Source of the DNA: a virus
DNA: 64,000 bases
Virus record (IMG/VR): IMGVR_UViG_3300048672_001165
Coordinates: 29,685 to 93,684 of that record
Direction: 5' to 3' (one strand)
In this document: positions 8,064-64,000 of the stretch, one piece after another
Layout of the letters: the number at the start of each line of letters is the position of its first letter
Position numbering within the stretch: position 1 is the first letter of the stretch
The notes under the pieces: model-generated
Database searches by the model: none
Told to the model about the DNA's origin: nothing
The model's input: only the letters and a program-made list of their open reading frames with translations
Position numbers and translations under genes: made by a program

Positions 8064-11000
8064 ATGACAACCTATAGCCAACGAAGCCGAGACGGCCAGC
8101 CGTACGATTTCCCCCAAGGTTTTTCCCTAGGCGGCGTCAGTCTAGACGCAGATGACAGTACACGGTCTATCGGCCTACAAGTCCCGGGTCAAGATGCGAC
8201 CACGCTTTATACGTGGCTGGTACAAACCAGGCAACGCCTGAGCGCTGCACAACAAACACTTCCCTTTGCAACGCAGCAACAAATAACAGAAGGTGTCAGC
8301 AACGCTTTGTTGATCAGCCCGGCTTCTCTTAAGCAAGCGCTGGCTAGCCTCATTGGTGTAGCGCCTGTAGCGCTCGACAGCTTGGCAGAGTTTGCCGCAG
8401 CCATCGGAAATGATCCTAACTTGTCAACCACGGTTGATTCACAACTGGCTCAAAAGCTCAGTCTTTTAGGATCGACTGCAACCGGTCTGGCTGAAACACC
8501 GACACCAACCACCAACCTCAATAAAGCACAAGCCATCAACATCGAGTATTTGCTTGCTAAAATTGATGAAGCTCTGCTCAGTCTGAAAGCGTTGCCGAGT
8601 GCGCCTACACTGGACGGCTTAAGCCTAGCATTGATTGGTCAGACCTATACGCTTAACATGTCTGCTACCGCAGGTAGTGGCTTGACAATTGCTAGCTTTA
8701 ATGTGCTGATCAACGGTGGTAACTTACAAACGGTAGCTGCCACCAACGGCGCCGGTGTTCTTCAATGGACTGTCGTTGGTACTGAAAACCAAACGCTTAC
8801 TTTCAGTGTCGTGGCAGTTGATAACCGTGGCCGTACGGGCCCGTCTGCGACCCTGCAAGCCACCGCCACTGCAACAGCTATTTATACGCCTACCTTTGTC
8901 AGCCCTGCTCAGGATAACCAAGGTGGTCTATCTCCTCACCTGACCATTGAAACCAGTGCGTTCAGCTCCCCGTTTGTGAGCCAAACCCACGCCGCCACTG
9001 ATTGGGCCATCATCAATGTGTCTACAGGACAAGTGGACTGGCAGGCTTTAGCTGATACGGCTAACCTCACCACCCGAGCAATACCTCGCACGTATCTTAA
9101 GAACGCTACGCAGTATACCATCACGGTGCGTTACATCAGTGCATCAGGTCAGACCTCAAGCTGGGGAACGCTACACTTTGGCACTGCTGCTTCTCAAGCA
9201 GCGCCCTCGTCCGTGGCTGGTTTTGGATATGCCCTACCCGGCGAAAACTACGCTGCCACAGTCACGGCTGTGGCCTCTACTGCACTGGATACCACCATTG
9301 AGAGTTACTACTACTCTGTGGATAATGGTGTTACCAAGTTACCTAATTTGCTTGGTTCAGTCAACAATGTCATTGCGGCAGGATCAGACTTGACAGGTCT
9401 TTCTGGAACCATTGACATCCTCTTTTATGTTTACCGAAACTACTCTGGGTTTTCTCTGCCAGTTGCTAAATCGGTGGTAGTGGGCCAAACAACTGCTGGA
9501 GCTTTCCTGTTTCCTACAGAAGGCTTGACGGGGGTGAGTCAACACCCCACATTCACAGTGAGTTCATACACCAGCAACATCCCAACCGATAGTCACTTGT
9601 CCAGTACCTGGACAGTCACGGATGTAGCTTCTAATGAAGTCATTGATGAAATCCACAATAGTGTTTCTGCAAAAAACGCTTGGAGCCCCGTTGGGTTGAC
9701 GGCAGGTACACAGTACCGCGTATCGTGTATTCAGCACGGTACCATCTTTGTAGGCCTACCTGCCGTCACTGTGACGTGTACGACCACGACGACACCTGAG
9801 GCTTACTTGCCCAGCCAGGTCATTTCCACCACCAGTGAAAATAACGCCCAGATGGGCTTTAGTTTGTCGACCAATCAAGACGGCTCGTTGTTTGTTGCAG
9901 GTATTCCTGCTGCAACCATGTACACGTTCAGTACACCACACACCAACAGTGGCGCTGTTGATTTCATTAATACCGCCCTGGCGACGTCCATTAGAACCAT
10001 GTATGGTCTTAGTACGGACATCAATACGCCGATCATATACACGGGTTTAGCATCCGGCATGAATGTGTTTGGTAACGTCATGGTGTACAACACGCGTTTG
10101 CCTAACATTGTCATTGCCGGACGCAATTCATCAGGTACCATGGTGAGTACCTCTGACGTCTTGAACAGCGCCATCACGACTGGTGCGGATGGGTTGGCAT
10201 TTGTCAAGGGTTTTGCACAAACAGATATGGGTATTGACTTTGCTGTGAGTTCTGCAGCAGGTATCCAGTGGTTCCAAAACTCCTCTCTGGCAGCGACCAC
10301 CAGACCGTTCTTGTTGTCCAGCACAATTCCTCAAGACCCGCTGGGGTTGGGGATGTCGCTACAGAGTTATGGAGATAGTCTTTCCATCAGCGGAGATGGT
10401 AATCGCCTTGCTGTGAGTCTTCGTTGGGGTATCAATACCAACGTGGCCAGCCTGGTTGGGTTTGCCGTTTACGACTACAACTCAACCAACAATACGTGGT
10501 CTTCTCCTGTGATTAAAACAGGTATTGTCATGGGGGCGTGGAACTTACCCACTGAGTTCAGTGCCAGCAACTGGATGCAAATGAGCCGTGATGGTAAAGT
10601 CATTGCACTGGGTAACCCATGTAAGTTGTCTAACAATACAGGTAAAGGCGCTATCCAGTTTTGGGTCAGTGACCGAGGCTCTGACCTTTCAGGTGAGACC
10701 TGGACACTCCAGCAAACCCTGGAAGACGCTAGAGGCGATGCCATTGATGGCGGCATGTTTGGTTATAGCTTGGCCTTGTCATCTAACGGCAGTGTGCTGG
10801 TTGCAGCTTGTGCGGGTTATTTGAACGACAACGGCTGCGGTCGCGTAGACTTGCTGCTGCGCACAACCCCGACCTCACAAAGCTGGCGTCAAAAGAATTA
10901 CTCCATGGTGCCGACGGCAATCAATCCTGCTGAATTGACCAATGCTCACGTGGGCTCTGCCTTGACGATAAGTGCAGATGGTCGGGTAGCCATGGCGTCT

Positions 11001-11150
11001 CATTTGAAATACAACGCAGGGTGCGGTGCTGCGCTGGTGTGGAATTTACCTTCCAGCATGATCACCCCTTACAGAGATGCTGGATTAGACAGCATCCCCA
11101 GTAACACCACTGAAGTGAACAATTTTGTGACTCGCGTGTCACAGATCTAA
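8064..11150 (+). CDS. Tail fibre/adhesin paralogue 1 (1028 residues)
   Basis: This is the first of three tandem paralogues. Residues 1-130 hold a shared N-terminal region with GLQVPG, LYTWLV, PFAT and LDSLAEFAAAIGNDPN motifs; the last is a pattern common in phage tail fibres and likely attaches the protein to the virion. Residues about 180-600 contain several immunoglobulin/fibronectin-III-like repeats. The C-terminal third has recurring blade-like motifs (SISGDGNRLAVS, MSRDGKVIALG, LSSNGSVLVAA, ISADGRVAMAS), as in beta-propellers. Such a modular adhesin would bind the host surface. A strong terminator follows the gene. Confidence 0.72.
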   Translation: MTTYSQRSRDGQPYDFPQGFSLGGVSLDADDSTRSIGLQVPGQDATTLYTWLVQTRQRLSAAQQTLPFATQQQITEGVSNALLISPASLKQALASLIGVAPVALDSLAEFAAAIGNDPNLSTTVDSQLAQKLSLLGSTATGLAETPTPTTNLNKAQAINIEYLLAKIDEALLSLKALPSAPTLDGLSLALIGQTYTLNMSATAGSGLTIASFNVLINGGNLQTVAATNGAGVLQWTVVGTENQTLTFSVVAVDNRGRTGPSATLQATATATAIYTPTFVSPAQDNQGGLSPHLTIETSAFSSPFVSQTHAATDWAIINVSTGQVDWQALADTANLTTRAIPRTYLKNATQYTITVRYISASGQTSSWGTLHFGTAASQAAPSSVAGFGYALPGENYAATVTAVASTALDTTIESYYYSVDNGVTKLPNLLGSVNNVIAAGSDLTGLSGTIDILFYVYRNYSGFSLPVAKSVVVGQTTAGAFLFPTEGLTGVSQHPTFTVSSYTSNIPTDSHLSSTWTVTDVASNEVIDEIHNSVSAKNAWSPVGLTAGTQYRVSCIQHGTIFVGLPAVTVTCTTTTTPEAYLPSQVISTTSENNAQMGFSLSTNQDGSLFVAGIPAATMYTFSTPHTNSGAVDFINTALATSIRTMYGLSTDINTPIIYTGLASGMNVFGNVMVYNTRLPNIVIAGRNSSGTMVSTSDVLNSAITTGADGLAFVKGFAQTDMGIDFAVSSAAGIQWFQNSSLAATTRPFLLSSTIPQDPLGLGMSLQSYGDSLSISGDGNRLAVSLRWGINTNVASLVGFAVYDYNSTNNTWSSPVIKTGIVMGAWNLPTEFSASNWMQMSRDGKVIALGNPCKLSNNTGKGAIQFWVSDRGSDLSGETWTLQQTLEDARGDAIDGGMFGYSLALSSNGSVLVAACAGYLNDNGCGRVDLLLRTTPTSQSWRQKNYSMVPTAINPAELTNAHVGSALTISADGRVAMASHLKYNAGCGAALVWNLPSSMITPYRDAGLDSIPSNTTEVNNFVTRVSQI

Positions 11151-11175
11151 CTCTGCGGCATAAAACCACACTCGC

Positions 11176-11207
11176 GGCGAGAGGGCTAAAAAACCCTCTC
11201 GCCTTTT
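11176..11207 (+). terminator. Intrinsic terminator after fibre paralogue 1
   Basis: A perfect 10-bp GC-rich stem GGCGAGAGGG / CCCTCTCGCC with an A-rich loop is followed directly by TTTT. It lies 26 bases after the stop codon, downstream of a GCGGCATAAA element. Confidence 0.85.
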
Positions 11208-11242
11208 ATATCGCTTTTTTCTTTTTACATCACTTCAACATC

Positions 11243-14200
11243 ATGACTCATAGCGTACGCCTGCCTGGCGGTGAGACTTACAATTTTGAACAAGGTATTG
11301 CTATCAGAGGTGCTGTACTGTCGTCACCTGATGGAGCCAAAGTGCTCGGGTTGCAGTTGCCTGGGGACACTAGCCTCAGGCGCCTTTATGACTGGGTGAT
11401 TGAAGCCGAGACTCGCATCAGTGCATCTCAAGCGTCTGTACCGTTTGCGACCGGCCCTGAAGCTATTGCGGGGCTCAGTGCCACTAAGCCTGTGGGGCCT
11501 ATGGGTCTTAAGGCCATCTTTGATGCTATTCGCGCCAGCACACCCACCGCACTGGATACCTTTGCTGAGTTTGCAAACGCCATTGGAAATGATCCTCAGT
11601 TTGCAACGCATATCTTTGCACTGATCGCTGCTAAAGCACCCAGTGCTTCTCCGACGTTTACTGGACTGGTGACGCTACCAAACGTCACCAGTCAATCTAG
11701 CCCTCAGCAAGCGGTCAATATTGGCGACATGGAAGCGGCTATTGAAAATATGCTCTTAGGCTTGATGCCCCCGCCAAATGCGCCAGTGCTTGACGGTGTA
11801 TCATTTGCAGTGGTAGGCACGGACTATGTACTTTCAATGAGTGCTGTGCCCAGTGATCCGAGACTCTCTATTGCTGAGTTCCAAATCTCGTTTGGTACCA
11901 ATGCGCCTGTCGTCGTCACAGCAACAGGTAATTCAGCTGTTTACAGCTGGCCTGCTGCGGGTACCACTGGCGTGTCACTTGACATCACCGTTTTGGCTAA
12001 AGACAATAAGAATAAGTTCTCAACCTCCACCGTGAAAACCATCACGATGCTGGCTGAACTGATTCAACATCCAACGATCATTTACCCGGCTGCCAACGCT
12101 TCTAACGTTGAATTTGACCCGGTCATTGAGCTGAGCCCTTTTACGGTTAACGTCGGCTCAGATACTCACGTGGCGACCAGTTGGGTTATTCGTGAGATCA
12201 GCTCTCAAGCGGTGGTGTGGCAATCGACCACAGACGCAACCAACCTCACCACCATCCACGTACCTCTAGGCTACCTGGCAGGTAGCCGTCAATATACCGT
12301 TGAGGCGACGTATCACGGCCTCACGCTAGGTGTGAGCGGTGTAAGCCGTCAGAACTTTACAACGGCTGCTCAAAAGGTAGCTCCTGCTGCGTCGGTGAAC
12401 GGCAGCAGCAATGCTGTTTTTGATAATGCTGATTTGACGCTGGTTGTTAACAGCACCATGACGACGTCGCCTGATACCGCCGTTGTCAAATACAGCTACT
12501 CGATTGGCTCACCTAACAACCCAGTGGATAAACTGAGCGTTCTTTCACAAGAGACGCTGGTGATCCCCTATAATCAGGTGGTGTTCAATAACCAAAATCA
12601 AGCGACACTCTACGTGTGGGTCACTTACAACCATACCGGTGTGAGCGCTCAAGCTCAAATCACACTGACCAAATACGTGGCTCAGCAAGCAAGCTTCACG
12701 TACCCGTCCTATGTGAATAACGTGGCTTTGTTTGACATTCCTGTCAAGCCTGTTTTTCAAACCACAGCTTATGTGAGTAATGTGCCTGGTGATACGCATC
12801 AGTCTACTGTGTGGACGCTGACCAATCTTGACTCCAACTTTGTTGAACTGACCGAGACGACTGCCTCGGGCAATTTAACCAGCTGGACGCCTTCTAAACA
12901 GATGGCTGTAGGATCACATTACGCCGTCACAGCCAAACAAGTGGGTGCTTATAACACAGCAGGGACTCTGTCTAAAGTCAGTCAGTTTTATACTGAGATG
13001 AACAGCAGCGTCAAAGTGCAGCAATCTTCAAAAACACTCTCGCCTACCGCCTTGGCATCTGCCACCAGTATTGGTCTTGGCAGTGTGGCCATCAGCCACA
13101 CGGGTGACAAAATCATGTTTGGTGACTTGGCGGCAGCGTACGCTCGCGGCGCCGTTTATACACTAGGTCGATCTGTGCTGGGTTACAGCGAACAGTCTGC
13201 TAATCTGGTTGAAATCACGTCGCCTATTTTCATGGCGCCTGACAATACCTATTACCAGGGCTTTGGTTTTAGAAATGCACTCTCTCCTGACGGCAGCTTT
13301 GCTGTAGCGGGTGGGTTTAATTCGGTTGGGGATGCTAACCGGTACTCTAACGTCACGGTGTGGGATACTGCTTTGGGTAACGTGTACGGCTACGGAGCAC
13401 CTTCTGTTTTACCAGGAGATGCTAATAACGTCAACATCTCCCACACCTGGGGGTTGGCTGCGTCTAATGCCAAGAAGCGTGTAGTGTATCACAGCGCTTA
13501 CCGAACGCAAATCAATGGCATCAATGGTACTTGGAGGCATGTGGTCGATACCATCGCACCTAACTTTACAGACCAGGTGCAGCCTTTGTTCTTATCGAGC
13601 GACAATACCAGCTATAACGCAGCTCAGCAGTATGACCCGCGTTATCCGTTGATGGATGGCAAGTATGTCAATCTATCCATTTCTGCAGATGGCAACACCC
13701 TGGCGGTGTGCTCACCTTATCAAGCTGGTGCTAATGGAGACTTCGTCAACGTCGTCACCGTCTACCAAGTTGTCAATAAAGTCTGGGTTGTTGTAGACCG
13801 TTTCTCAGATGACATAGACCGCAGCTACACGGCACTGCAGGCTCAGAATGATCTGGCGTACATGAACACCATGAGCATGAGCGGTGATGGCAACACCATT
13901 GTGTTGGCTGGCCGTACCCAAACCATCAACGGCTCAACCAGCGGGGAAGTCAACGTCTTCACTAAAACCGCAGGCGTGTGGTCTCTCTCTAATACGCTGA
14001 ATCCAAACGTGTCCATTCTGGACCGAGTGGGTCTGGCTGGTTTGGGTGATATTGTGTTTGGTCAAGCTGTCAGCATCAACCACGATGGTACGGTGATGGC
14101 GGTACTCTACCAAGACCAAGCTCAACAAAAACCTGGTTTTTACGACATCTGGCGCCAAGAAAATGGGACTTGGGTTGAGATGGGTTACCGTATTGAGCCG

Positions 14201-19016: not shown

Positions 19017-20933
19017 TTAGGAAGCGTTTCGTTCAATGACAACAGACTCAAGTGCATACTTGACGTTGTTGACTGAACGTGTTTGAATCAGTTCAAACTG
19101 AACTTGATCAGTTTGAAACGTCATGTGAGTCGTCCAGACCCCTTTCGTGTCTGCAGGGTTATGTTGATAAGATCCAATCAAAACCCCATTTGCTCTCAAA
19201 TCAAAGTTAAGTGTTTGACCCGGCTCTACGTGTAGAGTGATGGTGATTTGATGACTTGTTTTAGCAGCGCTGGTGACCGCTTGCGTCCAATCTACCAAAG
19301 AGGTATTAACGCTAGAGCGTCTGCTTAAGAAGGAGCGCCCTACGCCTACTTTAGACAGCACAAAAGCAAACGGGTGGCTCACATACACCATGTTAGGGAT
19401 ATGTTCTACTATCGCTCCTGTACCAGCCCCAAAGGCGGCGTCTTGGCGACCAAAAGAAAAGTCAAAGTCTTGCCAACCACCAGAGAAGTAAGCGTTGGAG
19501 TTGACAACACTAAAGCAGTTGTGATGACGTTTGAAATAGTCATCTAAAACATCGATTTCATACAGACTCAATAGTCGGTTATAGACCAAGAATTCGATCA
19601 CTTGACCAGAGCTGTTAGGCAGAGCTTGCAAACCGACCAGTCCACCTGACTGGAGAGTCAGAGGCTTCTCTAGCCCAGACCACTTGCCGTACTGCCGAGC
19701 ATTTTGACTACTCAAAAAGTAGCTTTGATTCACATCACCCGTGCATGCAAAGTAAAGCACAGTTGCATCTTGGGCATGTCCTTGATAACTCTTAGCGTAA
19801 ACCATTCCGTTAATACGGATACCCACATCTTGAGTCAAGTCGATCTCAATAGTTTCGTGAGCTAGCTTGACTTGTCCTTTGAAGTCATTACTCACCACCA
19901 AGCACAAAGTGACTTCAGCACCCGTACTCACTGCTAAACCGCTGATGTCACTCACCGCACTACTCAGCGACAGGCCAGGCCCTTGAACAGTAGCCCCATT
20001 GAGCATCAAAGACCGAGACTGCCCCGTATGGTCTCTCCAGTACGTGGTATTGTTATCAGCCACTCTAGAGAAATCAAACCAGCAGGTCAAGTCCTGTATA
20101 TACTTAGGACTGTCAAAGTGCCTTTGAGTCAATGCCCACTTGGCAGCGATGTGTTTAAGGGCAAGCGCTTGCGTGATGTTTTGAAAGTATTTCTGTTGAC
20201 GACTATTCATCCACTTTTGCCTGACAAGCCTGTCTTGCAGCATGATGGTGCGGTCGACTGAATCGTCAATCAACGCTTTTTGTTCTAGTGTTTCTTTACG
20301 AATATTAAAAACTTGTTGTTCAATAGCGTCTGTGATGGACTGCTGCCTTTGATCAACAAGTTGGATCAACTCAGCATTCGTCGCCGGCCAGGCCACTTGT
20401 AAGATGTGGTCATGGATCGCCGTATCTTTGACATGCATGGCCGCTTCCAGTGCTTGTATAGGCACAGAGATCTGATCCATGTCGTAGTACGTGTAGAGTT
20501 GATGGATGTGAGGCGCAGGTGTAAACTGCTTGGGCTTTAAAATATCAGTGGTCCAATCAAACGTCTGATTTGGATCAAAGATAGCGTTGTACGCTGCAAA
20601 GAACGCCTGCCGGTTGGCGTACTCTGGACCACCCACATACTGCGCAGTGACGTTAACGCTGGTTGCAGTCACGCCAGCGGCCATCACAATGTTGCAGTGA
20701 ATTGCCTTTTTGAGTTCACGACTACTCAGACTCAGGAAGTCCCCCACATGGTAGTCCACCCCCTTGGTGAGCGTGACCCCTTGATCGGTTATGACGATCA
20801 AAGAGTTGCTATAAAAAGCACCCCACTCTGGAAGAATGAGTTTGTAAACAGGTACAGGGTAGTTCTCTGTTTTCAAGTTGCTTGCCGCTTGTCCTGTTTG
20901 GTCAAACGGTAGTAAAAACACAGTGTCTGTCAT
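19017..20933 (-). CDS. Virion protein with FD-TGQ module and LamG-like domain
   Basis: In this 638-residue protein, residues 8-25 carry the FDQTGQAASNL start shared with the gene at 6549-8039, followed by GVDYHVGDFLSLSS near residue 57. Residues about 290-470 look like a LamG/concanavalin-A-like jelly roll: WFDFSRVADNNTTYWRD at the start and EFLVYNRLLSLYEIDVLDDYF at the end, a typical closing motif. Such domains often bind sugars, so this may be a baseplate-attached adhesin or side fibre. The C-terminus is beta-rich. It is read in the same direction as, and just upstream of, the 270-residue gene. Confidence 0.65.
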   Translation of the reverse strand: MTDTVFLLPFDQTGQAASNLKTENYPVPVYKLILPEWGAFYSNSLIVITDQGVTLTKGVDYHVGDFLSLSSRELKKAIHCNIVMAAGVTATSVNVTAQYVGGPEYANRQAFFAAYNAIFDPNQTFDWTTDILKPKQFTPAPHIHQLYTYYDMDQISVPIQALEAAMHVKDTAIHDHILQVAWPATNAELIQLVDQRQQSITDAIEQQVFNIRKETLEQKALIDDSVDRTIMLQDRLVRQKWMNSRQQKYFQNITQALALKHIAAKWALTQRHFDSPKYIQDLTCWFDFSRVADNNTTYWRDHTGQSRSLMLNGATVQGPGLSLSSAVSDISGLAVSTGAEVTLCLVVSNDFKGQVKLAHETIEIDLTQDVGIRINGMVYAKSYQGHAQDATVLYFACTGDVNQSYFLSSQNARQYGKWSGLEKPLTLQSGGLVGLQALPNSSGQVIEFLVYNRLLSLYEIDVLDDYFKRHHNCFSVVNSNAYFSGGWQDFDFSFGRQDAAFGAGTGAIVEHIPNMVYVSHPFAFVLSKVGVGRSFLSRRSSVNTSLVDWTQAVTSAAKTSHQITITLHVEPGQTLNFDLRANGVLIGSYQHNPADTKGVWTTHMTFQTDQVQFELIQTRSVNNVKYALESVVIERNAS

Positions 20934-32438: not shown

Positions 32439-32472
32439 TCACATATCACTAAGATGAAGTAGGGAATGTATC
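32439..32472 (+). promoter_or_regulatory. Promoter-like motif before the first hairpin gene
   Basis: AATCACATATCACTAAGATG followed by AAGTAGGGAATGTA. The first part matches the sequence before the gene at 63540 (AATCACATATAAC), and CATATCAC...TGAAGTAGG matches the sequence before 35826. It is followed by TTAGGAG and the ATG at 32495. Confidence 0.4.
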
Positions 32473-32494
32473 TCTACAACTTAGGAGTATTACC

Positions 32495-32764
32495 ATGTCT
32501 GTCCGTCAAACCCTGAGCGTCTCGACTTCGGTCGAGACGTTTTTGTTTAACTTCAGCTCGACTTCGGTCGAGCTGGTTCTGAACCAGCGCGTGGCTGGCC
32601 GCGTTCGCGCGGCCACAGTCCGCGCTTTGTTCGCGGCCGCAGTGGCCGCCTTCTCGGCCGGCGCTGGCGCCGCCGAGGTGGATGACTATTGCGACAACGC
32701 GGTCGTCGCCGGGCTGAACTGGCAAGCGGCGATCGATGACATATTCACTGCAGCGATGCAGTGA
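32495..32764 (+). CDS. Hairpin-packed GC-rich small protein gene 1
   Basis: An 89-residue protein with a good TTAGGAG site. The first 30 residues include a repeated STSVE motif; residues 31-55 are Ala/Arg/Val-rich (RVRAATVRALFAAAVAAF) and may be an amphipathic or membrane-inserting helix. The tail is acidic. The DNA is unusual: at least six perfect inverted repeats with short loops lie end to end from 32518 to 32672. It belongs to a group of similarly structured genes (32860, 33220, 63540). No family is recognised, and the protein may be secondary to the RNA or DNA structure. Confidence 0.55.
   Translation: MSVRQTLSVSTSVETFLFNFSSTSVELVLNQRVAGRVRAATVRALFAAAVAAFSAGAGAAEVDDYCDNAVVAGLNWQAAIDDIFTAAMQ
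32518..32672. repeat. Tandem array of perfect stem-loops inside gene 1
   Basis: Stems read directly: CGTCTCGAC-TTCG-GTCGAGACG (32518-32539, followed by TTTTT), CAGCTCGAC-TTCG-GTCGAGCTG (32554-32575), GCTGGTTC / GAACCAGC (32572-32588), TGGCCGCG-TTCG-CGCGGCCA (32596-32615), CCGCG / CGCGG (32620-32636), GCGGCC / GGCCGC (32633-32649) and CGGCG-CTGG-CGCCG (32659-32672). Three loops are TTCG; in the first two the loop is closed by C-G, the very stable cUUCGg RNA form. A 16-base core CTCGACTTCGGTCGAG is repeated 36 bases apart. Confidence 0.9.
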
Positions 32765-32780
32765 AGTTTCCCAGTAGTGA

Positions 32781-32810
32781 GAAAGAGGGTCAGTAGGCTC
32801 TCTTTCTTTT
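32781..32810 (+). terminator. Probable terminator after hairpin gene 1
   Basis: The stem GAAAGAG (32781-32787) / CTCTTTC (32800-32806) has a 12-base loop and is followed by TTTT. Confidence 0.6.
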
Positions 32811-32859
32811 GCCTGTGCTTACCAGGCTTTGTAGTAAGCAAATCAATTAGGAGTGAATT

Positions 32860-33207
32860 ATGTCTTTCTACGCTGATGTTCTTGCCGGGCGAGTTCAAAT
32901 GCCCCACCCGCAGTCATGGGACAGCGTGTTTGGGGGCTTTGACCAGATTGAGGGGGCGACTCAGGCCGCCTCGCTGGCGAAGATCCCCAGCTGCCGCTGG
33001 GGTATTCTGGCGTTCGACGACCAGAATACCAACCCGGTCGCCATCCCCATTTTCCCCCGGCTTGGGGGAAATGGCCTGGAAGAGGCGGTTCAGGCCGCCG
33101 CTGCGGTGGCCGGCATCTTGTACTCGACCACCCACGTGGTCGACGTGCGGCTGCGCGTGGCGGCTGTCCTGCCTGGCCTGCAAAGTCACGCCAGCTTCAC
33201 CTTCTGA
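32860..33207 (+). CDS. Hairpin-packed GC-rich gene 2
   Basis: A 115-residue protein, MSFYADVLAGRVQMPHPQSW, with a good TTAGGAG site. It is Ala/Gly/Val-rich with no membrane helix or signal peptide; several short strands and a small Ala-rich helix (about residues 74-86) can be guessed. No family is recognised. The coding DNA from 32985 on contains consecutive perfect stem-loops, the last ones crossing the stop codon and the start of the next gene. It is cotranscribed with the next gene, 12 bases away. Confidence 0.55.
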   Translation: MSFYADVLAGRVQMPHPQSWDSVFGGFDQIEGATQAASLAKIPSCRWGILAFDDQNTNPVAIPIFPRLGGNGLEEAVQAAAAVAGILYSTTHVVDVRLRVAAVLPGLQSHASFTF

Positions 33208-33228
33208 AGGGGGGTTATCATGACCCCC
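32985..33228. repeat. Stem-loop array in gene 2 and across the gene 2/gene 3 junction
   Basis: Stems read directly: CCCCAGC-TGCC-GCTGGGG (32985-33002), GGTATTCTGG / CCAGAATACC (33001-33030), TTTCCCCC / GGGGGAAA (33051-33071), GGCGG / CCGCC (33084-33099), TCGACCAC-CCAC-GTGGTCGA (33124-33143), CCTTC / GAAGG over the stop codon (33200-33210) and GGGGGT / ACCCCC (33210-33228). The last has the start codon of gene 3 in its loop and the G-rich ribosome site in its stem. Confidence 0.9.
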
Positions 33229-33903
33229 TTCAACGAGCCGCGCGTTTACGCGGCGGGGTTGTCTACGGACGACCCCACGCAGGCCTTCGCTTATGGCGAA
33301 GGCCTCTTCGTCCGGCAGCGCAACAAGGTGGCGTTCACTACGTCCGGCAATTTCATTGCCGAGCTGGCGCAGGGGCTCTGGTACCAGATCAATGGTACCC
33401 GGGTGAAAAAGCCCGCCACGGCGGTGATTAAGCCGGACATCGCAGTCCGGGCGTTTTCGCATGACCGCTACATGGCGGTGATGTCAGAAATCGCCACGGA
33501 CTGCGAAGCGGTCCAGGGGTTGCTGGAAGGACAGCCCCTGGTCCAGAACTTAGACCTAGTGCCGCGAATGGCACCGCATACGCCAGCTGCCCCGGGAGAA
33601 ATCCCGGAATTTAAGCTGGTGGCATCGCCGAACAGCGGCAGCTCCTTCACGTCGGATGTAAAGTTCGACGTGAAGTTTGGCAATCTGTCTTTCCGAGACG
33701 AGACGGGCAACCGCATCGTCGTGAACGACCTGCTTCCGTATGCGCAGGAGGCATTTCGATTTGACGTGACTATCATGAAGTTTCAGCAGCTGGCCGCCCT
33801 GGTGCGGCTGGCGCTGACCTTTAATGAAAGTCAGACGTCTTGGAAAATCCAATGGGTCTTCGTGCCGCAAACCGGGCTGTATTACAGCCTTGAGGCGGCA
33901 TAA
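33220..33903 (+). CDS. Hairpin-packed GC-rich gene 3, carries a repeat module
   Basis: A 227-residue protein. Residues 4-59 form a module with FNEPRVYAAGLSTDDPTQA, VRQR, SGNFIAELA and WYQI motifs. The same module appears twice in the GC-rich protein at 35826-37556 (about residues 117-172 and 193-250), so the genes are related in part. The remainder is beta-rich then helical. The ribosome site and ATG sit in a hairpin, which may limit translation. Hairpins cover most of the first 450 bases; the last 200 bases have few. It ends GGCGGCATAA. The function is unknown; the module may be a small beta-domain for binding. Confidence 0.6.
   Translation: MTPFNEPRVYAAGLSTDDPTQAFAYGEGLFVRQRNKVAFTTSGNFIAELAQGLWYQINGTRVKKPATAVIKPDIAVRAFSHDRYMAVMSEIATDCEAVQGLLEGQPLVQNLDLVPRMAPHTPAAPGEIPEFKLVASPNSGSSFTSDVKFDVKFGNLSFRDETGNRIVVNDLLPYAQEAFRFDVTIMKFQQLAALVRLALTFNESQTSWKIQWVFVPQTGLYYSLEAA
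33237..33808. repeat. Stem-loop array inside gene 3
   Basis: Stems read directly: GCCGCG / CGCGGC (33237-33254), AGGCCTTCGC-TTATG-GCGAAGGCCT (33281-33305), CGGCAAT-TTC-ATTGCCG (33345-33361), GGTACC / GGTACC (33380-33399), CCGGAC / GTCCGG (33433-33450), ACCGC / GCGGT (33464-33479), CCAGGGG / CCCCTGG (33513-33541), CCGGGA-GAAA-TCCCGG (33592-33607, a GNRA-type loop), ACGTCG / CGACGT (33649-33671) and a last GCCGC / GCGGC (33793-33808). Confidence 0.9.
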
Positions 33904-35825: not shown

Positions 35826-37556
35826 ATGGTTCTGACTGAAACCCACCTGTCGCCAGAGATGTTTGTGTTCGAGGAAATCCCTCCTGAGCACATTCCACAT
35901 TACCTGGCTCTGTTGTCTGAAGGCCAAATACCCACGGCCGAATTGATCAAGGAACGCATCATGACCACCAACTGCATCGACACCACCACCATCGTCACCG
36001 ACGTCGCCTACGGTGGCGACCAGACCGGCATCAGTGCCGCCCCGGCGCTGACCCTGATCAGCAATCCGCTGGCCGGCGATGATGCCGGCGCTTCCTCGTA
36101 CGAAGCTCCGACTCCGACCACCGCTGCCCCGGTCGTCATCGCCAACGCCGCCTGGGCGCCGGTGGCACGGCCGTCCTACGCCGAGCCGATCCCCTACAAG
36201 GCCGGCCTGAGCACGGACGTGCAAACGCAAGCGTACGTCTACGAAGGCGAGCGGTATATCCGTCACAAGACGGTTGAGCCGTTTGTCACGTCCGGCAACT
36301 TCGGCAAGGAACGCAACGAGGGTAAGTGGTACAAGATCGGCGCAGCGGGCGCCAAGGTCGCTGGCGCCAACGGTACCGTCCTGGCCCCGGCCAAGCCCGC
36401 CGCTTTCAACGAGCCGGTGCAGTACGTTGTCGGCCTCGACACGGCCGACCACACCCAGCCGGTCGACGCGCCGGACGGCAACCGCTACGTGCGGGAACGA
36501 AAGGTGCCGGCGTTCATCGCCAGCGGCGACTTCGAAGCCGAACTGGCCGCCGGCAAGTGGTTCAAGATCCGCGGCCCCAAGCCGGTCAAGGCCGAAGTGA
36601 TCATGGCCCCCAAGGCCAAGACCCTCACCGGCGCTCCGGCTTCGTCGGAAGCCCTGCAGAAGCTGGCCGAGCGCGCCAACAACACCAACCTGGCCAAGCT
36701 GGTGTCCCCGGTGAAGACCGCGTCGCTGCTGCAAGCTGCAGCGGCCGGCTCCGGCCACAAGGCCAAGCTGGCTGGCCTGGTCGCCGCCTCGACCGGCAAC
36801 GATGAGTGGCGTGAGGACACCCTGAACATCTGGACCCGCTCGGCGCAGCCGGTCGGCCAGCTGCTGGACGTCTCCGCTGACAACAACGTCGGCCTCGACC
36901 TCGGCCTGGACAAGGACGGCAACCCGATCTCGGGCGGCACGTTCCGTACCGTCAAGGGTCTGGAACTCTGGCTGCGCCTGAAGGACCAGTCCTTCGAGGC
37001 GATGGTCCAGACGCTGCGCACGGCCAGCAGCGGCAAGCTGCACCATGTGGTCAAGGACCACCCGGAGCATTTCAGCGACCTGAGCCCGGAAATCATCGCG
37101 CTCATCGGCGCGGTGCTCTGGGACCACCTGCTCAAGGCCGAGCACGTCGCTCACCGTGCTGAACTGGCCCGCGCCGGCCAGATCGTGTCGAAGTACATGC
37201 ATGGTGAAGAGATCGACGAAGCCACCGGCGCCGTCCTGACGCCGGGCAGCTGGCGCCACACCACCGAGGCCTGGTGGATCGTCCCGCTGGCGCAAGCCAT
37301 GCAGGATGCGCTGCTGACCGCGGACGCCGAAGGTCGTGATGCGGCTGAAGTCGCCGTCGATTGGGACGGAACGGCCAAGCAGGCCTTCGAAGACAACAAG
37401 AAGCGCATCGAGCGCCGGCAGGCGCAACGTGTCGACTTCAATGCGCCTGCCCGGCGCAGCTCGTTCATCACGGACTACCGTGATCCGCCCAAGCCCAAGC
37501 ACGGCAAGAAGGTCAAGGTCGAGACGGCCGCGCCTGCCAAGAAGGGCAAGAAGTAA
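35826..37556 (+). CDS. GC-rich 576-residue protein with two copies of a repeat module
   Basis: Residues about 117-172 and 193-250 are two copies of a module with YxAGLSTD/YVVGLDTA, YVYEGERYIR/DAPDGNRYVR, SGNF/SGDF and GKWYKI/GKWFKI motifs. One copy also occurs in hairpin gene 3. The first 45 residues are encoded by ordinary, less GC-rich codons; from the in-frame ATG at 35961 (AAGGAA site upstream) the DNA becomes strongly GC-rich. Either start is possible. The middle (about 330-480) is helical and the end is Lys-rich (KKGKK), which could bind nucleic acid. No known family is recognised. It is likely highly expressed, given codon usage and its own promoter-like region and double terminator. 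Confidence 0.6.
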   Translation: MVLTETHLSPEMFVFEEIPPEHIPHYLALLSEGQIPTAELIKERIMTTNCIDTTTIVTDVAYGGDQTGISAAPALTLISNPLAGDDAGASSYEAPTPTTAAPVVIANAAWAPVARPSYAEPIPYKAGLSTDVQTQAYVYEGERYIRHKTVEPFVTSGNFGKERNEGKWYKIGAAGAKVAGANGTVLAPAKPAAFNEPVQYVVGLDTADHTQPVDAPDGNRYVRERKVPAFIASGDFEAELAAGKWFKIRGPKPVKAEVIMAPKAKTLTGAPASSEALQKLAERANNTNLAKLVSPVKTASLLQAAAAGSGHKAKLAGLVAASTGNDEWREDTLNIWTRSAQPVGQLLDVSADNNVGLDLGLDKDGNPISGGTFRTVKGLELWLRLKDQSFEAMVQTLRTASSGKLHHVVKDHPEHFSDLSPEIIALIGAVLWDHLLKAEHVAHRAELARAGQIVSKYMHGEEIDEATGAVLTPGSWRHTTEAWWIVPLAQAMQDALLTADAEGRDAAEVAVDWDGTAKQAFEDNKKRIERRQAQRVDFNAPARRSSFITDYRDPPKPKHGKKVKVETAAPAKKGKK

Positions 37557-58055: not shown

Positions 58056-58201
58056 AATACAGACTATATTACTAACTTGATCCATGGGCCTGAATCATTT
58101 ACTTTTCAAAAGTAATAAGGCTTTGTGATCAAGTGCTAGCAGCGTCTACACTGAACAGCACTGAGCGTTTTTCAACCCCCATCCCAAAAGGAACACGAGT
58201 C

Positions 58202-63450: not shown

Positions 63451-63512
63451 AACAAGATTGCAGAAATACGCAATCACATATAACAACTATGAGATAAGGA
63501 ATGTCTTCTTAT
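63451..63512 (+). promoter_or_regulatory. Promoter-like AACAAGATT-17-CATATAAC arrangement
   Basis: AACAAGATT (63451-63459) is followed after 17 bases by CATATAAC (63477-63484); the same pair with the same spacing precedes the gene at 35826. AATCACATATAAC also matches the region before 32495. GGAATGT follows, as before 32495. Confidence 0.45.
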
Positions 63513-63539
63513 CCAAATGTGTTACTTTAGGAGTTTGAC

Positions 63540-64000
63540 ATGACCCGCATCGTTAACCTGACCCAGCATACCGGCACCCCGACTCAAAGTGAGCAGGGTC
63601 TCATCGAGGTCTCTGCCGAAGACCGCAGCGCCCTGACGGCGCTGCTGACATTCGATTCCCCCCCGGAAGCGGGGGAGATCGACGAACGTGCAGGCGCGAT
63701 CGTGCAGATCGCGCAGAAGTACGGCGCCACGCGCGCCATGATTGGAGGAGCCATGTGGCTCCAGGGCCCGCTGGAGCGGGCCCTGTTCTGTGTTCGAATC
63801 GAACCCGTCTACGGCTTTTCTCGGCGCGCAAGCGTCGAGGAGAGTCTTCCGGACGGCACCGTCCGGAAGGTGCAGGTATTCGAACACGTGGGGTGGGTCC
63901 GCCCGTATAAGGCGGACTTCGAAGTCCGCCCGGAGGCGCCGGCTCCGGCGGTGGAAGGTTGGGTGGTGGTTTGCCTCCCAACCAAACCCTGGGGGGGGCC
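63540..64000 (+). CDS. Hairpin-packed GC-rich gene 4 (runs off window end)
   Basis: An open frame from the ATG at 63540 (TTTAGGAG site) continues to the window edge, about 153 residues, MTRIVNLTQHTGTPTQ at its start. Motifs LLTFDSPP, AMIGGAMWLQGPLERAL, IEPVYGFSRR and LPDGTVRKVQVFEHVGW match, from memory, a widespread bacterial/phage family of small proteins of unknown function whose members begin 'NLTQH.ATP'. The coding DNA is nearly filled with perfect stem-loops. Its leader resembles that of hairpin gene 1, so it probably belongs to the same group. The role is unknown. Confidence 0.6.
   Translation, partial: MTRIVNLTQHTGTPTQSEQGLIEVSAEDRSALTALLTFDSPPEAGEIDERAGAIVQIAQKYGATRAMIGGAMWLQGPLERALFCVRIEPVYGFSRRASVEESLPDGTVRKVQVFEHVGWVRPYKADFEVRPEAPAPAVEGWVVVCLPTKPWGG
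63625..63983. repeat. Stem-loop array inside gene 4
   Basis: Stems read directly: GCAGCGCC-CTGAC-GGCGCTGC (63625-63645), TCCCCC / GGGGGA (63657-63676), GCGCGATC-GTGCA-GATCGCGC (63694-63714), GGAGCC-ATGT-GGCTCC (63747-63762), CAGGGCCCGC-TGGA-GCGGGCCCTG (63762-63785), GTTCG-AAT-CGAAC (63792-63804), CTTCCGGACGG-CA-CCGTCCGGAAG (63846-63869), GTCCGCC / GGCGGAC (63897-63917), GGCGGAC-TTCGAA-GTCCGCC (63911-63930), CGCCGG-CT-CCGGCG (63937-63950) and GGTTGGG / CCCAACC (63957-63983). Confidence 0.92.

What the first reader, a model, noticed from the sequence alone, without database searches (positions are those of the whole stretch)
63540..64000. A second, distant gene with the same stem-loop packing
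Eleven perfect inverted repeats cover most of 63625-63983, including 10-11 bp arms (CAGGGCCCGC / GCGGGCCCTG; CTTCCGGACGG / CCGTCCGGAAG). The protein looks like a member of a known 'NLTQH' family and is unrelated to the proteins at 32.5-33.9 kb, yet the DNA style, GC-richness and leader are shared. So the hairpin trait follows the nucleic acid, not the protein fold. That points to a process acting on a class of accessory genes.
Basis: partly seen in the sequence, partly recalled or inferred. Interest (0 to 1): 0.85.

Follow-up and report, generated by a model that had tools for sequence, protein, structure and literature searches.

The report
Hairpin-packed phage ring-nuclease-like gene
A large bacterial virus carries a gene, distantly related to enzymes that switch off type III CRISPR immunity, whose DNA is packed with perfect hairpins far beyond chance, and relatives of the gene in many other viruses share the trait, most likely because hairpins are copied into being during DNA replication and then tolerated or kept.

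Summary
The gene at 63540-63998 has 56 bp in perfect stems against 10-12 expected when codons are shuffled synonymously. GC alone does not explain it: the 63% GC capsid gene of the same contig shows no excess. The contig is a fragment of a phiKZ-like jumbo phage. It holds four hairpin-packed units, each preceded by the same promoter plus stem-loop leader; the leader motif occurs only at these four places. The protein is Csx20-like, a distant relative of cA4 ring nucleases, so a likely early anti-type-III-CRISPR gene; it does not reach the curated Csx20 cut-off. The stems were not acquired only here: 86 homologues average 3.1-fold excess, and several equal this gene, some at 40-50% GC. Neighbouring genes are partly hairpin-packed too (1.8-fold), while control phages have no piece this dense. 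So the trait follows certain accessory genes across phages. Tests for the cause conflict: stems are perfect Watson-Crick, shift register between homologues and mostly show no G-U preference, pointing to DNA template switching; but the family shows some G-U extension and compensatory change, pointing to mRNA selection.

The parts
63477..63484 (+). Promoter-like box CATATAAC of the phiKZ-group early type (phiKZ: TATATTAC)
   Evidence: consensus from PMC7058600 Table 2
63490..63515 (+). Leader stem-loop; conserved motif GGAATGTCT at 63498, loop ATGTC, stem GATAAGGA/TTCTTATC that differs by paired changes from the other three leaders
   Evidence: motif occurs exactly four times in the 93.7-kb contig, all before hairpin-packed units
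63540..63998 (+). Csx20-like (NLTQH) gene, 153 codons readable, cut by the contig end; 65% GC, packed with hairpins
63625..63645 (+). Perfect hairpin GCAGCGCC CTGAC GGCGCTGC
63660..63675 (+). Perfect hairpin CCCCCG GAAG CGGGGG
63694..63714 (+). Perfect hairpin GCGCGATC GTGCA GATCGCGC
63762..63785 (+). Perfect hairpin, 11-bp arms, encodes QGPLERAL
63846..63869 (+). Perfect hairpin, 11-bp arms, encodes the family-typical peptide LPDGTVRK
63911..63930 (+). Perfect palindrome GGCGGACTTCGAAGTCCGCC in the C-terminal extension
63937..63950 (+). Perfect hairpin CGCCGG CT CCGGCG
63968..63988 (+). Perfect hairpin GGTTTG ... CAAACC
32442..32490 (+). Same promoter and stem-loop leader (CATATCAC; GGAATGTAT at 32463) before the second hairpin-packed unit in the window
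32495..32764 (+). Hairpin-packed orphan gene (stem fraction 0.30), including two hairpins that share the core CTCGACTTCGGTCGAG but have different, still complementary, outer arms
32860..33207 (+). Hairpin-packed orphan gene
33220..33903 (+). Hairpin-packed orphan gene

Best explanation
The gene encodes a Csx20-like protein that the phage probably makes early in infection to destroy cyclic tetra-adenylate, the alarm signal of type III CRISPR. Its hairpins most likely arise at the DNA level: while the gene is copied, the polymerase briefly uses the other arm of a near-palindrome as template (quasi-palindrome template switching), which turns imperfect inverted repeats into perfect ones. This happens repeatedly, mostly through synonymous changes, in a class of accessory genes carried by many phages, and the products are tolerated or mildly favoured at the mRNA level. 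Shown: the excess, its spread through the family and into neighbouring genes, and the shared leader. Inferred: early expression, the ring-nuclease function, and template switching as the source.
For: Stems in the eight packed genes of this contig are almost purely Watson-Crick: 265 pairs with 3 G-T and 2 A-C mismatches. Excess structure is nearly equal on both strands (mean z -5.6 sense, -5.0 antisense). Between related phages, stem pairs break to G-T as often as to A-C (65 against 60), and stems diverge at rates close to background. Dense neighbouring genes show no G-T preference (54:61). At one conserved peptide (FSxRESVE) different homologues carry perfect hairpins in different registers. 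Single examples look templated: L047:3126 has a four-base change in one arm only, and L079:2736 differs from L067 by five of seven bases in one arm only. Some compensated pairs are transversions such as G-C to C-G. This contig has 2.1 times the expected stems over all its genes, against 1.0-1.6 in six stretches of related phages. The mechanism is known to make hairpins and coding multi-base changes elsewhere (PMC8794818, PMC8604942). Protein: all six family members tested match Csx20 models and the profile comparison with two true Csx20 proteins gives 90% probability.
Against: Changes were not concentrated in one arm overall: 11 stems with one-arm changes against 14.7 expected. Compensated pairs exceed chance, 17 against 6.1, with some events counted in both directions. 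In the family itself stems extend through G-T more than A-C (69:35 against a null near 1, p 0.001, sequences not independent), and sense structure is slightly stronger than antisense; both favour selection on the mRNA. A purely mutational process does not explain why four units with one special leader carry the trait while a GC-rich capsid gene in the same contig does not. The Csx20 model score is 21.9 bits, far below its cut-off of 70.
Confidence: 0.42

Rival explanations
1. Selection on the messenger: codons are chosen so that the early mRNA folds into tight local hairpins which, with the leader stem-loop, shield it from nucleases or from RNA-targeting defence.
For: The four packed units share one structured leader found nowhere else in the contig. 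Family stems extend through G-T pairs on the coding strand (69:35) and sense folding is somewhat stronger. Compensated pairs exceed chance. Stems cost no amino-acid identity (odds ratio 1.22 against 1.13 +/- 0.12). Two genes at 32.9-33.9 kb show sense-specific excess.
Against: No wobble preference in the packed genes of this contig (7:6) or in dense neighbouring genes, almost no G-U inside stems, stems diverge close to the background rate, and registers shift between homologues.
Confidence: 0.33
2. The stems are an inherent by-product of GC-rich codon usage or of the protein sequence of the family.
For: Some stems fall on conserved peptides such as PDGTV with palindrome-prone codons, and the Azotobacter gene has a shorter stem there.
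Against: Synonymous shuffling keeps protein and codon usage and removes most stems. GC-rich genes elsewhere in the contig and in control phages lack them. AT-rich homologues have them (L083, 40% GC).
Confidence: 0.05
3. The packed genes are recent imports from GC-rich phages that have a strong hairpin-forming tendency, and this phage only added its own early promoter and leader.
For: Packed genes are 55-65% GC in a contig of about 50% GC. Other phages with the family also have packed neighbours.
Against: The other packed genes that were searched have no detectable homologues, so a donor cannot be shown. The origin of stems in the donor would remain unexplained.
Confidence: 0.15

Closest known systems
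Csx20 cA4 ring nuclease of type III CRISPR loci (PMC12409355)
   Same: Similar length, collinear profile match at the C-terminal half, near full-length matches for some family members; Csx20 reported in four phage genomes by that paper
   Different: Below the curated cut-off; two bacterial genomes hold a true Csx20 as a separate gene, and those two Csx20 genes are not hairpin-packed
Coding palindromes in mitochondrial genes of Nematomorpha (PMC6649704)
   Same: Perfect inverted repeats inside functional coding sequence, compatible with conserved protein
   Different: There up to 284 bp; here many short stems of 6-13 bp with loops mostly of 3-6 nt, in phage accessory genes
Template-switch mutations that create and repair hairpins (PMC8794818, PMC8604942)
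   Same: Perfect Watson-Crick stems, multi-base and compensatory changes
   Different: Known as scattered events in RNA genes and yeast genes; here the excess is concentrated in particular phage genes, and direct footprints are only anecdotal
phiKZ-group early promoters (PMC7058600 Table 2)
   Same: CATATMAC or TATATTAC box before the units
   Different: Four units add a specific stem-loop leader with the motif GGAATGTMT

Membership tests
Csx20 ring nuclease (NF040559) | Score above the curated cut-off of 70 bits | tested here: not met
   21.9 bits
Csx20 ring nuclease (NF040559) | Homology to Csx20 | tested here: met
   All six members match NCBIfam and PADLOC Csx20 models; hhalign 90% probability, E 1.7e-6, over 48 columns
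Csx20 ring nuclease (NF040559) | CARF-like (derived Rossmann) fold | tested here: inconclusive
   Confident model (pLDDT 87.7), but no significant PDB match; cA4-bound Cam1 at rank 3 and ring nuclease Sso2081 at rank 20, both non-significant
Csx20 ring nuclease (NF040559) | Degrades cA4 | not testable with these tools
   Needs biochemistry
phiKZ-like jumbo phage | phiKZ-type major capsid protein | tested here: met
   41% identity over 94% to Burkholderia phage FLC9, 209 phage records matched
phiKZ-like jumbo phage | Phage nucleus shell protein (chimallin) | not tested
   Contig is a 93.7-kb fragment; not searched
Quasi-palindrome template-switch products | Changes confined to one arm and copied from the other | tested here: inconclusive
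   Individual examples but no overall excess of one-arm changes
Conserved functional RNA structure | Same stems kept with G-U intermediates | tested here: inconclusive
   Family G-T extension 69:35, but registers shift and pair breaks are neutral in related loci

The most novel reading that the evidence does not exclude
Phages that face RNA-targeting immunity fold the messages of their early anti-defence genes into continuous hairpins, in this phage marked by a common leader, so that type III or type VI guide RNAs and RNases cannot gain a hold before the anti-CRISPR protein is made.
Probability: 0.13. Interest if true: 0.88.

Novelty: new variant of a known kind. Interest (0 to 1): 0.62.

Why it matters
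Coding sequences packed end to end with perfect hairpins are very unusual, and here the trait can be followed through some 86 homologues and their neighbours. It makes it testable whether replication itself sculpts phage accessory genes or whether phages armour particular messages. It also points to a widespread viral Csx20-like family as candidate anti-type-III-CRISPR proteins. That fits nucleus-forming jumbo phages, whose exported transcripts stay exposed to type III immunity (PMC13282480).

Tried and rejected
GC-richness or codon usage as the cause (rejected). Ordinary feature of phiKZ-like phages (rejected: FLC9 and LucasX, about 280 kb of coding sequence, have no packed gene). Stems acquired only in this genome (rejected). 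Feature of all phage early or accessory genes (not supported: D3-type exonuclease neighbourhoods 0.83-fold). One-arm clustering as proof of template switching (not confirmed). Protein cost of stems (none). Finding relatives of the other packed genes or of the phage's capsid protein in viral contigs (nothing). Leader motif TAAGGAATGTCTCTTTACC in other viral contigs (none). Pfam and PHROGs for the protein (none). A first run of the strand-folding test timed out.

Full report
What the thing is. The window is positions 29685-93684 of a 93,684-bp virus record. Its major capsid protein is 41% identical to that of Burkholderia phage FLC9 and 36% to Xanthomonas phage LucasX, so the record is a fragment of a phiKZ-like jumbo phage. 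The finding concerns the last gene, 63540-63998, which runs off the contig end.

Observation. The two quoted stems are exact. With arms of at least 6 I count eight separate perfect repeats rather than eleven. Permuting synonymous codons, which keeps protein and codon usage, lowers stem content from 56 bp to 10-12 bp; none of 100 shuffles exceeded 36. Folding energy is 6 standard deviations lower than in the shuffles. The 63% GC capsid gene and a second 63% GC gene show no excess, so GC is not the reason.

The rest of the contig. Further packed genes lie at contig 10726-12076 (two genes), 19799-20453 (two genes) and window 32495-33903 (three genes). In FLC9 and LucasX, about 280 kb of coding sequence, no gene reaches a stem fraction of 0.12; here seven do. 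The whole contig has 2.1 times the expected stems, the relatives 1.0-1.6 times. Note on method: automatic ORF choice took the antisense frame for the gene at 10726 and for the finding's gene, and the small gene at contig 20208 was analysed one base out of frame. The finding's gene was analysed in its true frame.

The leader. Each of the four packed units begins with a CATATMAC or TATATAAC box and a stem-loop with the motif GGAATGTMT. That motif occurs four times in the contig, every time at these places; about eleven boxes of this promoter type exist, and the others have different leaders. If leaders were dealt at random among eleven units, the chance of this exact match is 1 in 330 (my arithmetic). 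The stem differs between leaders by paired changes (GGTAAGGA/TCTTTACC, GATAAGGA/TTCTTATC, GTAGGGA/TCTCTAC). The box matches the promoters listed for phiKZ and 201phi2-1 (PMC7058600). Early expression is therefore inferred, not shown.

The protein. Pfam and PHROGs give nothing. All six diverse members tested match Csx20 models, ten of twelve bacterial genomes carrying the family ring with the Csx20 model, and profile comparison with two true Csx20 proteins gives 90% probability. Two genomes hold a true Csx20 as a separate gene, in one of them about 6 kb from csm1. The curated cut-off is not met, so I call it Csx20-like. Csx20 degrades cA4 (PMC12409355). The AlphaFold model is confident but has no significant PDB match.

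The family test. I fetched relatives from IMG/VR and GTDB. In 86 loci the family gene has stem fraction 0.106 against 0.035 expected; neighbouring ORF pieces have 0.050 against 0.027 (p 9e-15); the family gene beats its neighbours in 66 of 84 loci. Fourteen percent of family genes reach 0.2, 3.5% of neighbouring pieces, and none of more than 1,700 pieces in control phages and control families. Cellular members show it less strongly (0.088) than viral ones (0.111). So the stems were not acquired in this genome, but the trait is far from ordinary. The controls are mostly cultured or Pseudomonas phages, so a broader environmental control would be useful.

Why the stems exist. I ran tests that separate DNA-level from RNA-level causes; they conflict. 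For DNA: almost pure Watson-Crick stems, similar excess on both strands, no G-T preference when stems break between related phages (65:60) or at stem ends in dense neighbours (54:61), divergence near background, and perfect hairpins in shifting registers over one conserved peptide. For RNA: G-T extension in the family (69:35), slightly stronger sense folding, more compensated pairs than chance (17 against 6.1), and the shared leader. One-arm clustering, the hallmark of template switching, was not in excess (11 against 14.7), although single examples are striking. Stems do not cost amino-acid identity. I commit, with modest confidence, to template switching as the source and tolerance or mild favour at the mRNA level as the reason they stay.

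Biological sense. Nucleus-forming jumbo phages hide their DNA, but their transcripts remain exposed to type III CRISPR (PMC13282480). An early Csx20-like gene would answer exactly that threat. Whether this phage forms a nucleus was not tested.

Noticed in passing
L005:10063-13558 (contig 10063-13558): A run of five genes that may be diverged paralogues (13-30% identity to the second), of which only two are GC-rich and hairpin-packed; the hairpin near the start of both packed copies lies at about the same place with entirely different stem sequence.
   Followed up: partly
58065-58140: A phiKZ-type promoter box followed by a strong stem-loop (-20.4 kcal/mol) and no obvious start codon close behind; possible small RNA.
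   Followed up: no
35826-37556: A 576-aa orphan gene of 65% GC with a moderate hairpin excess (93 bp against 40), behind the same promoter type but without the special leader.
   Followed up: partly
63985-64000: The contig ends in a run of eight G inside the hairpin-packed gene, so the assembly may have broken because of its structure.
   Followed up: no
L115:3-389: A different small phage gene family starting VINLTPH is also hairpin-packed in a locus that carries the NLTQH gene.
   Followed up: no
L043, L044, L047, L051: Four related environmental phages whose whole accessory region is packed with hairpins, a good natural system for studying how the stems evolve.
   Followed up: partly
L249, L250: Two campylobacterial genomes hold both a true Csx20 (in one about 6 kb from csm1) and a separate NLTQH-family gene, suggesting the latter sits on a mobile element.
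   Followed up: no
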